Assembly (NCBI GenBank): GCA_028583405.1
Contig: CM053256.1
Location: forward strand, 22,231,325 to 22,295,324
Reading direction: 5' to 3'
DNA from: Pogonophryne albipinna
Lineage: Eukaryota; Chordata; Actinopteri; Perciformes; Artedidraconidae
DNA: 64,000 nt
Shown: positions 60,578-61,941 of the stretch, piece after piece
How positions within the stretch are numbered: the first letter of the stretch is position 1
Layout of the letters: each line of letters begins with the position of its first letter
Program-made: the position numbers and the translations under genes
Notes under the pieces: model-generated
What the model saw: only the letters and a program-made list of their open reading frames with translations
The model's database searches: none
What the model was told of the DNA's origin: nothing

Positions 60578-60970
60578 GTTGCGACCTGGCTCAAAAGGCC
60601 ACAACAAAAAGGAGACACAACATGTCAACGGGTAGGTAACGGTGTTTATTTAAGACAAACAAATCAAATCCAGTAAAGTATGAGGTGTGGATGTCAGTGG
60701 TATCAGTAATGTAAATGCAGGGTGAGGATTGTATGGACATGTATGTGTGTGAGAGTGTTGAAGTGCACAAAGTAAAGCAACTGAAGAAACTCCTACTATA
60801 CTCAACAAAACCGGTGTGCCTGCAGGGAGAAGCAGAGAGAGAACAGAGAGGAGCAGAGAGGCGTTAAATAGCTGCAGGACACCAGACCCAGGTGCCCTGA
60901 GTTACTGCAATCACCAATCATCACAGCACAGCCACCTCCTCTCTACTGATGAACCCACAGGGGCATCACA
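60577..60970 (-). repeat. 3' LTR (394 bp)
   Basis: Runs TGTGATGCCC…GGTCGCAACA on the minus strand (TG…CA). It contains a TATA-like CTATTTAACG (near 60873) and AATAAA (60645-60650) about 70 bp before its end, the usual promoter and polyadenylation order. Confidence 0.92.
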
Positions 60971-61941
60971 GCCCCCCCCTTAAGACGGGGCCCCAAAGGG
61001 ATCCACGACAACCCAATATCCTTCTTAATTCCAGCTTTTTTAATTTCCTTCTTAGGACTGGAGGACGCTCCTCCTCCGCCACTGTCCCACTCCTCCTTGG
61101 GTTGGCTGGCGTTGAGCCACAGCATGTAGGCGCTCATCGGCCTCTTGGGCGCGCCGACCTCCTTCGGCCTCCTCTTCTTCGGCCTCCTCTTCTTCGGCCT
61201 CCTCTTGTTCGCTTTGCAGGGTTTCCTCTCTTTCTTCTCCTTCTTCTTTGTCTCGATCTCAAAGTCAAAGGACCTTGCTGGACCACATTTTCCAGACTCC
61301 GAAACAGGTAGGTCAGTCGACATCCTACGGCTCTGCGCACGCGTAACAGTATAAACTGGAGACACACTTGGAAATTGCAAACCGCTCTCATCTGGCTCTA
61401 CATATGCCAACGGCCTGGAAACCACCACAGGCGGTGGCACACCCGCCCACACAGCACTACCAGCTAGATCGTTGCCCAAAATCATCTGTACCCCATCAAG
61501 TGGCAACGCGGGACGCACGCCGATAGACACAACTCCCCGTACCAGCTCACAATCCAGCACTACTGTATGACGTTGCACAGGAATCAAGCCCATCTCCATG
61601 CCCCTCATCAGTACAAAATCCCCAGTTTCTGTCTCTGACGAAAAAGGCAACACTGACTCAACAATAAATGAGTATCTAGCTGCTGTGTCACGCAACACCT
61701 TAATCGGAACATACTTGTCACTACCGACCATCGATACAACGGCTTCCATTATGAACGGCTCAAAAACAGAACCCACCTCCAAGTCGGCACAAACCAGCTT
61801 CTTAACAGGCACCATGCCCGATCTTACACTCTGCGGCTTTTTAACCAAAACGGCAGAACAACACATGGCTGGAGCATGTGATGAAGAACGAGGCTTCCCC
61901 TCAGGTTCCAGCAACGGACACCGCTCCTTCCAATGACCCTC
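60943..61941 (-). CDS. Protease region fused to an SSRP1-derived HMG-box tail
   Basis: Continues the gag frame after an in-frame TAA (61942-61944), so it has no ATG of its own; the frame ends at 60943 inside the LTR. Order: second half of the zinc knuckle (G-H-W-K-E-R-C), a linker, a retropepsin-like protease core with L-R-D-T-A-A-R-Y-S-F-I (61678-61689 codes D-T-A-A) and V-Q-M-I-L-G-N-D-L (about 61480), then T-R-A-Q-S-R-R-M, where reverse transcriptase would normally follow. Instead come SSRP1-like pieces (61018-61275). Retropepsins need D-T/S-G at the active site; here the glycine is alanine, so activity is doubtful. Described as found; I do not reconstruct an intact form. Confidence 0.8.
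   Translation of the reverse strand, partial: EGHWKERCPLLEPEGKPRSSSHAPAMCCSAVLVKKPQSVRSGMVPVKKLVCADLEVGSVFEPFIMEAVVSMVGSDKYVPIKVLRDTAARYSFIVESVLPFSSETETGDFVLMRGMEMGLIPVQRHTVVLDCELVRGVVSIGVRPALPLDGVQMILGNDLAGSAVWAGVPPPVVVSRPLAYVEPDESGLQFPSVSPVYTVTRAQSRRMSTDLPVSESGKCGPARSFDFEIETKKKEKKERKPCKANKRRPKKRRPKKRRPKEVGAPKRPMSAYMLWLNASQPKEEWDSGGGGASSSPKKEIKKAGIKKDIGLSWIPLGPRLKGGAVMPLWVHQ
60971..60982 (-). other. Polypurine tract
   Basis: AAGGGGGGGGC immediately upstream of the 3' LTR on the minus strand, the expected plus-strand primer site for reverse transcription. It overlaps the end of the gag-protease-SSRP1 frame. Confidence 0.85.
61018..61275 (-). other. SSRP1: Captured host SSRP1 (FACT subunit) fragment, internally deleted
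   Basis: SSRP1 is the HMG-box subunit of the FACT histone chaperone. Four separate signatures occur in order: S-F-D-F-E-I-E-T-K (61246-61272) from the SSRP1 middle domain; a basic linker with three 15-bp repeats coding K-R-R-P-K; A-P-K-R-P-M-S-A-Y-M-L-W-L-N-A-S (61105-61152), the diagnostic start of its HMG box; K-E-E-W-D from the end of the HMG box; then a serine/glycine-rich S-G-G-G-G-A-S-S-S and K-K-E..K-K-D tail. Roughly 40-50 HMG residues between L-N-A-S and K-E-E-W-D, and the stretch between the first two signatures, are missing. All pieces are in one frame with the protease. No intron remains, consistent with copying from mRNA. Confidence 0.82.

What the first reader, a model, noticed from the sequence alone, without database searches (positions are those of the whole stretch)
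60943..61914. Gypsy retrotransposon that replaced its pol gene with a fragment of the host chromatin gene SSRP1
Protease sequence runs in frame into four ordered SSRP1 signatures (S-F-D-F-E-I-E-T-K, the HMG-box start A-P-K-R-P-M-S-A-Y-M, K-E-E-W-D, and the Ser/Gly-Lys tail), with internal gaps and no introns. Reverse transcriptase and integrase are gone. This fits template switching between element RNA and SSRP1 mRNA, followed by deletions. An HMG-box and basic linker fused to gag-protease could tether particles or cDNA to chromatin, or simply be passenger sequence. I am not aware of a described vertebrate Gypsy family carrying SSRP1, but I cannot search.
Basis: partly seen in the sequence, partly recalled or inferred. 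Interest (0 to 1): 0.88.

Follow-up and report, generated by a model that had tools for sequence, protein, structure and literature searches.

The report
Jumping gene carrying SSRP1 fragment
In an Antarctic plunderfish, a retrotransposon that lost its own copying enzymes carries, fused to its capsid-protease gene, a shortened copy of a host chromatin gene (SSRP1) taken from spliced messenger RNA, and that fragment recurs at about 260 other places in the genome.

Summary
Window 60577-64000 (minus strand) is a young 3,477-bp non-autonomous Gmr1-like Ty3/gypsy element: 394-bp LTRs (392/394 identical), TSD ATCCA, SCAN-domain gag, retropepsin, then in frame 255 nt of host SSRP1a. Its SSRP1a gene (C3, 26.39 Mb) matches the segment exon by exon in order, with exact runs up to 77 nt; three host introns (95, 967, 75 bp) are absent, two within exact runs, so the donor was spliced mRNA. 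Joins lie partly at short repeats. Full-length relatives in the same genome have integrase and RNase H where this element has SSRP1. A 33-nt SSRP1 probe finds 264 places, one being the host gene. All 40 copies examined carry the same in-frame segment; Gymnodraco acuticeps has related fusions. gag and protease look constrained (pN/pS 0.26, 0.39); the SSRP1 part does not (1.18), and only 18 of 69 HMG-box positions remain. Best reading: host-mRNA capture, probably by template switching, amplified in trans by relatives, the SSRP1 tail mostly a tolerated passenger. Gene capture by LTR elements is known; my searches found no vertebrate gypsy family built on SSRP1.

The parts
60572..60576 (.). Target-site duplication ATCCA (the second copy lies just beyond the window, after 64053)
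   Evidence: L019 flanks TGGAT/TGGAT in element sense; a paralogous uninserted copy of the site reads CGATCCATATCAAC near 53850
60577..60970 (-). 3' LTR (394 bp)
   Evidence: 341/341 identical to the part of the 5' LTR in the window, 392/394 over the whole LTR in L019
60971..60982 (-). Polypurine tract TAAGGGGGGGGC
   Evidence: identical in 29 of 32 copies with two near-complete LTRs, nearly so in 3; shared with a full-length relative
60983..61020 (-). Remnant of the element's own 3' end, downstream of the lost pol
   Evidence: aligns to the 3' end of a full-length relative, L060
61021..61275 (-). SSRP1a-derived segment, in frame with gag-pro
   Evidence: blocks against host exons; 40 of 40 copies
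61246..61274 (-). SSRP1a exon A block (RSFDFEIETK), 29 nt exact
61219..61248 (-). SSRP1a exon B pieces (16 and 25 nt) joined at an 11-nt repeat
61162..61211 (-). 15-nt tandem repeat coding KKRRP units (3.3 copies; one unit in the host gene)
61104..61180 (-). SSRP1a exon C block, 77 nt exact, start of the HMG box
61083..61099 (-). SSRP1a exon C/D block (KEEWD), exact, crossing a 967-bp host intron that is absent here
61044..61069 (-). SSRP1a exon D/E block (SSSPKKE), exact, crossing a 75-bp host intron that is absent here
61276..61941 (-). Retropepsin (protease) region and the linker to the capture point
   Evidence: fold match to retroviral proteases, best E 2.7e-4; 90% nucleotide identity over 321 nt to full-length relatives
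61918..61959 (-). CCHC zinc knuckle, interrupted in this copy by a stop at 61942-61944
   Evidence: other copies compared
61945..63090 (-). gag, with a SCAN domain at about 62101-62370
   Evidence: Pfam SCAN E 3.6e-18
63645..63659 (-). Primer-binding-site region AATGGGGGCTCGTCC next to the 5' LTR
   Evidence: leader 96.7% identical to a full-length relative over 245 nt
63660..64000 (-). 5' LTR, cut by the window's end (continues to 64053 in the genome)

Best explanation
This is one copy of a young, multi-copy, non-autonomous Gmr1-like Ty3/gypsy family. During reverse transcription in a virus-like particle, the element's cDNA switched onto a packaged, spliced SSRP1a mRNA in the protease-integrase linker and switched back just before the 3' end. 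That replaced integrase, RT and RNase H with SSRP1a sequence, which was then shortened by further deletions, some at short repeats. The element kept LTRs, PBS, PPT, gag and protease, so its RNA can be packaged and copied by enzymes from full-length relatives in the same genome, with its own Gag-Pro-SSRP1 protein co-assembling. The SSRP1 tail is tolerated rather than maintained. Shown: spliced-mRNA origin, breakpoints, copy number of the SSRP1 probe, mobility marks in the copies examined, helper candidates, constraint on gag-pro. Inferred: the particle-stage switch, trans mobilisation, and expression of the protein.
For: Host SSRP1a located. Two host introns (967, 75 bp) are bridged inside exact 17- and 26-nt runs; the 95-bp B/C intron is bridged without a gap but with 3 mismatches in 12 nt around the join. 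175 of 183 nt identical over 61 aligned codons. Microhomology at joins: 6 nt ACAAAG, 11 nt GAAGGAGAAGA, 3 nt GGA at the 3' join. Same segment in 40 of 40 copies; 264 probe places, 0 in the reversed control. 32 of 40 copies have two near-complete LTRs; of these 16 pairs have no base mismatch (14 also no gap) and 28 have a 5-bp TSD. Relatives: 118 of 118 scored hits among 4011 candidates match a protease-integrase query; of the top 41 (86-92% identity) 22 list an open frame of 1000 aa or more. Pieces of one of them show no SSRP1 after protease and RNase H (Pfam E 1.7e-23) near the 3' end. Two gag types on one pro-SSRP1 half point to recombination. pN/pS gag 0.26, pro 0.39, SSRP1 1.18.
Against: No RNA, protein or transposition data. 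Read-through from an insertion near SSRP1a, then splicing, would leave similar marks. The 5' join and the NAS-KEEWD join show 4-5 unassigned bases, not microhomology. The 40 copies were the best-scoring ones, so intact frames are over-represented; recombination blurs the pN/pS values. No stop in SSRP1 in 40 copies and only 3n indels there could hint at constraint, though only about 1.1 stops were expected. Odds set to 0.8, down from 0.86 in my draft, because on recheck the B/C intron is not bridged by an exact run and the read-through rival overlaps this statement.
Confidence: 0.8

Rival explanations
1. The SSRP1 tail is kept because it works: its KKRRP-rich basic stretch acts as a nuclear-localisation or nucleic-acid-binding tail on Gag-Pro, helping complexes reach or hold chromatin.
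For: Basic KKRRP units rise from one in host SSRP1a and in the Gymnodraco fusions to two in P0050 and three (37 of 40) or four (3 of 40) in the copies examined. The SSRP1 frame is open in 40 of 40 copies and its indels are multiples of three. Fusions persist in two named species.
Against: pN/pS about 1 in the segment against 0.26 and 0.39 in gag and pro. Host-to-element changes are 6 nonsynonymous to 2 synonymous. Only 18 of 69 HMG positions remain. Slippage of 3- and 15-nt units gives in-frame length changes anyway.
Confidence: 0.12
2. Capture by transcriptional read-through: an ancestral copy sat in or near SSRP1a, a chimeric transcript was spliced and packaged, and recombination restored the 3' end, as in classical retroviral transduction.
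For: Sense orientation, exons in order and intron loss fit this too; the first and last joins lie inside exons, where non-homologous joining could act.
Against: No LTR, leader, gag, protease or 3'-end piece of the element is found in the 20 kb fetched around the host SSRP1a, though an ancestral insertion could have been lost. The 5' join is inside exon A, not at an exon start, so a spliced element-SSRP1 junction is not what remains.
Confidence: 0.2
3. Sequence sharing is the benefit: up to 77 nt identical to an essential host gene makes small-RNA silencing of the element costly to the host.
For: 36 of 40 copies share 77 nt, and 38 of 40 at least 73 nt, exactly with spliced SSRP1a; 263 non-host places carry the probe.
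Against: No small-RNA data; most of the element offers unrelated targets; a neutral passenger of recent origin would look the same.
Confidence: 0.05
4. Artefact or low-complexity similarity: a Lys/Arg-rich stretch that only resembles SSRP1, or a one-off assembly join.
For: The linker is low-complexity and rich in K and R.
Against: Exact 77-, 29- and 26-nt matches in exon order, the same joins in 40 of 40 copies, fusions in another species.
Confidence: 0.01

Closest known systems
Bs1 of maize (LTR element with fragments of three host genes; PMC13317346, passages seen)
   Same: LTR element that carries transduced fragments of host genes and forms a chimeric reading frame
   Different: Plant element and other host genes; here vertebrate, one host gene, many near-identical copies. 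That Bs1 lacks RT and links the fragments to gag is recalled, not from a call.
LTR-mediated retroposition in metazoans (Tan et al. 2016; described in PMC5408686, passages seen; the paper itself was not held)
   Same: Template switching between element RNA and cellular mRNA at short similarities; reported in zebrafish and other animals
   Different: Those are described as retrocopies of genes; here the chimera keeps gag and protease in frame with the host piece and has become a mobile family of its own
Teleost retroviruses with cellular genes, CNPase or macro-domain ORFs (Basta et al. 2009; seen only as described in PMC4977317)
   Same: Fish retroelements that took up cellular coding sequence
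   Different: Those are described as additional ORFs in epsilon-like sequences; here pol is replaced and the host piece is fused to gag-pro
Gag-onc fusions of acutely transforming retroviruses (recalled)
   Same: Host cDNA fused in frame to gag, pol lost, movement needs a helper
   Different: Not an infectious retrovirus, no room for env between gag-pro-SSRP1 and the PPT, no growth-gene cargo, germline family
Gmr1-like Ty3/gypsy retrotransposons with SCAN-type gag (PMC3424704 and PMC4131045, passages seen)
   Same: SCAN gag; relatives show protease, integrase, then RNase H last
   Different: This family has no pol and carries SSRP1a

Membership tests
Gmr1-like Ty3/gypsy retrotransposon | gag with a SCAN-type domain | tested here: met
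   Pfam SCAN E 3.6e-18, above cut-off
Gmr1-like Ty3/gypsy retrotransposon | integrase upstream of RT/RNase H (domain order recalled from the literature) | tested here: met
   Only in relatives: integrase zinc-binding domain directly after protease (P0005, P0011, P0020; L059 and L062 run into the same stretch) and RNase H as the last coding sequence before the PPT (L060). Not testable in the window element, which has no pol; the RT itself was not looked at.
Gmr1-like Ty3/gypsy retrotransposon | RT phylogeny | not tested
   The element has no RT; no tree of relatives was built
LTR retrotransposon (mobile copy) | paired LTRs, TSD, PBS, PPT | tested here: met
   for the window copy and 32 of 40 copies; 28 of 32 have a 5-bp TSD, 4 do not; two pairs of copies share the same flank and so are duplicated insertions. 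The PBS was not matched to a tRNA.
LTR retrotransposon (mobile copy) | own RT and integrase (autonomy) | tested here: not met
   none between protease and PPT; filed as non-autonomous
Host-gene capture from mRNA | introns of the donor gene absent at splice sites | tested here: met
   967- and 75-bp introns bridged within exact runs; 95-bp intron bridged without a gap, 3 mismatches in 12 nt
Host-gene capture from mRNA | microhomology at joins | tested here: inconclusive
   6 nt, 11 nt and 3 nt at three joins; the 5' join and the NAS-KEEWD join have 4-5 unassigned bases instead; 11 of 40 copies have one codon more at the 3' join
SSRP1/FACT subunit protein | complete HMG box and structured SSRP1 domains | tested here: not met
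   HMG box 1-18 of 69, below cut-off; tail predicted with low confidence, pLDDT mostly under 60
Gag-onc-like defective transducing element | movement by a helper | not testable with these tools
   Candidate helpers exist; no transposition assay

The most novel reading that the evidence does not exclude
A vertebrate gypsy lineage evolved a new kind of Gag: a Gag-Pro protein with a C-terminal chromatin-protein tail, in which a single SSRP1 basic unit was tandemly amplified (one to three or four KKRRP units) into a nuclear-entry or chromatin-docking tail. The tail would let a polymerase-less element compete with its own helpers and spread to a few hundred sites.
Probability: 0.1. Interest if true: 0.85.

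Novelty: new variant of a known kind. Interest (0 to 1): 0.62.

Why it matters
It is a datable case, in an animal genome with full-length relatives alongside, of a retroelement taking up host mRNA and founding a mobile family. Donor gene, joins, intron losses, candidate helpers and many descendants are all in one assembly, so the steps usually inferred for gene capture (template switch, deletion at repeats, recombination with relatives, trans mobilisation) can be ordered from sequence. It also suggests that gag-pro fused to a nuclear host fragment remains mobile.

Tried and rejected
Exon-boundary guesses from isoform gaps suggested the capture starts at an exon edge (one gene model of another fish). 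The host gene itself showed exon A runs through that point, so this was dropped.

A functional HMG box was considered and rejected. Selection on the SSRP1 segment was considered and not supported. In one search the codon comparison had an offset error in exon A and its codon counts are void; one search replaces them. One search was a script that failed; one search replaces it.

PDB search of a possible exon at 59857-59935 gave nothing; Pfam on three other window ORFs gave nothing at E 0.01; Rfam on 40000-64000 gave nothing at gathering score.

Not achieved: genome-wide counts of the NAS-KEEWD join and of longer SSRP1 forms (all unanswered). No tree, no tRNA test of the PBS, no transcript or small-RNA data. 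Of the 264 probe places 100 were listed and 164 not; only the 40 copies were read as elements, so SSRP1b or fragments may be among the rest.

Literature: (search listings, titles and abstract starts) showed no paper on SSRP1 capture by a retrotransposon or a gag-SSRP1 family; the library lacks most subscription journals. Passages only were read in PMC13317346, PMC5408686, PMC4131045, PMC3424704, PMC5941688, PMC10256766, PMC10716251, PMC8672886 and PMC4977317. Tan 2016, Emerson and Thomas 2011 and Basta 2009 were not held.

Full report
What is there. The window's right end holds an LTR element on the minus strand. LTR copies lie at 60577-60970 and from 63660 to beyond the window. In the genome the element is 3,477 bp with 394-bp LTRs identical at 392 of 394 positions and a 5-bp duplication, ATCCA on the plus strand. 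A 282-bp repeat at 53576-53857 is an uninserted paralogue of the target: it reads CGATCCATATC where the element sits between CGATCCA and ATCCATAT. gag (63090-61945) has a SCAN domain (E 3.6e-18). One stop interrupts the zinc knuckle. The same frame then runs through the protease, whose predicted core matches retroviral proteases (best E 2.7e-4), into the SSRP1-like tail and ends at 60943.

Species. The genome holding the window has contigs C1-C7 of the same lengths as chromosomes 1-7 of Pogonophryne albipinna in PMC10716251, for example 59,391,674, 50,992,350 and 47,603,259 bp. Total size and scaffold number differ slightly (1,073,210,567 bp in 861 contigs; 1,074,502,020 bp in 1,111 scaffolds). 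P0001, a named P. albipinna protein, is a further copy, 96% identical over all 332 residues.

Donor gene. SSRP1a of the same genome lies on C3 near 26.389-26.400 Mb. The element's segment matches five exons in order: exon A 29 nt exact; exon B 16 and 25 nt; exon C 77 nt; C/D 17 nt; D/E 26 nt. The host introns between B and C (95 bp), C and D (967 bp) and D and E (75 bp) have GT...AG borders and are absent from the element: C/D and D/E are crossed inside exact runs, B/C without a gap but with 3 mismatches in the 12 nt around it. Over 61 aligned codons 175 of 183 nt agree, with 2 synonymous and 6 nonsynonymous codon changes. The donor was therefore spliced mRNA in sense orientation. The residues KKRRPKEVG match icefish and P. 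albipinna SSRP1a and differ from Eleginops and Cottoperca, which suggests capture after Eleginops split off; this rests on few residues.

Joins. Exon A meets exon B at ACAAAG, present in both; a second deletion within B lies between two copies of GAAGGAGAAGA; the join from C to C/D has four extra bases; D is shortened in the P. albipinna copies but longer in two Gymnodraco acuticeps proteins. The 3' join to the element's own end shares GGA; 11 of 40 copies have one codon more there. The residues QP at the NAS-KEEWD join recur in Gymnodraco and in 39 of 40 copies, one having HP, so these fusions share one ancestor. P0050, from an unnamed source, has a shorter variant ending after the basic stretch.

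Relatives with pol. A search with a protease-integrase relative found matches in 118 of 118 scored places (4011 candidates); of the top 41, at 86-92% identity, 22 list an open frame of 1000 aa or more. Pieces of one such element (L059, L060, L061) and the junction of another (L062) show protease at 90% nucleotide identity over 321 nt. In the first, the leader is 96.7% identical over 245 nt and the LTR ends are 83-97% identical. In both, the frame passes from protease towards integrase without SSRP1. In the first, RNase H (Pfam E 1.7e-23) lies last before the PPT.

Family. The first genome search scored 40 of 582 candidates, and all 40 cover the query fully at 98-100%. A 33-nt probe with up to 3 mismatches gives 264 places, one being the host gene, and none for the reversed control; 100 places were listed, all without mismatch. 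Of the 40 copies, 32 have two near-complete LTRs: 16 of 32 pairs have no base mismatch (14 also no gap), mean divergence is 28 in 12,604 aligned sites, and 28 of 32 show a 5-bp duplication. Two pairs of copies share the same flank and are duplicated insertions. With a recalled range of 1e-9 to 1e-8 substitutions per site and year this would be roughly 0.1-1 million years; the rate is an assumption. PBS and PPT regions are kept with small differences in those 32.

Coding state. Among the 40 copies, stops lie in gag in 3 (the window copy and two others, whose stops are at other codons), frameshifts in gag in 2 and in protease in 2, none in the SSRP1 segment; L028, L032 and L034 align only from inside gag and L024 has a 489-nt gag deletion. 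Pairwise pN/pS is 0.26 for gag, 0.39 for protease and 1.18 for SSRP1. Counting variant codon types instead gives 0.36, 0.49 and 0.92. About 1.1 stops would be expected among 21 random changes in the SSRP1 segment, so their absence says little. These copies are the best-scoring ones and are biased to intact frames. Two gag types, 4-9% apart, share one protease-SSRP1 half that differs by 1-2%, which points to recombination between family members.

How it most likely works. Shown: mRNA origin, loss of pol, retained cis signals, recent insertion, coding constraint on gag and protease. Inferred: an element cDNA switched templates in the protease-integrase linker to SSRP1a mRNA and back near the 3' end; RT and integrase come from full-length relatives; the element's own Gag-Pro-SSRP1 co-assembles. 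Constraint on gag-pro suggests the element still uses its own Gag. The 20 kb fetched around SSRP1a hold no piece of the element, which gives no support to a read-through origin but does not exclude it. The SSRP1 tail holds 18 of 69 HMG-box positions, is poorly structured in prediction and evolves without detectable constraint, so it is most likely a tolerated passenger. The increase of KKRRP units from one (host, Gymnodraco) to two (P0050) and three or four (P. albipinna copies) is the one observation that could point to use; slippage explains it too.

Comparison. Host-gene capture by LTR elements is known: Bs1 in maize (PMC13317346, passages), LTR-mediated retroposition in animals (PMC5408686, passages), fish retroviruses with cellular ORFs (PMC4977317, passages), and zebrafish LTR elements said to hold cellular genes (PMC8672886, passages). 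SCAN gag is a Gmr1-like trait (PMC3424704, PMC4131045, passages). Searches listed nothing on SSRP1 carried by a retrotransposon. I rate it a new variant of a known kind.

Noticed in passing
53576-53857 and 60296-60577: A 282-bp repeat at 99% identity, 6.7 kb apart; the second copy is the element's target and the first shows the uninserted site. Its nature was not worked out.
   Followed up: partly
gag of L019-L058: Two gag haplotypes, about 4% apart in the 5' part and 9% in the 3' part, are joined to almost the same protease-SSRP1 half, a sign of recombination among family members.
   Followed up: partly
62707-62825 and gag indels: Tandem repeats (9-21 nt units) in gag; gag indels among the copies are mostly multiples of three.
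   Followed up: no
L060, L061 (full-length relative): The middle of the LTR differs strongly between the full-length relative and the SSRP1 family, while the LTR ends and leader are alike.
   Followed up: no
44685-46184 minus and 27567-28385 plus: Long open frames that look by eye like transposon remnants (hAT/ZBED-like and LINE RT-like, recalled); Pfam at E 0.01 found no family.
   Followed up: partly
59857-59935 plus: A short open stretch (KMIVKVQYRNQKKYIKIPEADIFITEGK) between AG- and GT-like borders could be a host exon; no PDB sequence match.
   Followed up: partly
groups at 54-56% and 46% identity: Further Gmr1-like groups with several nearly identical long open frames lie in the same genome, suggesting more than one young lineage.
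   Followed up: no
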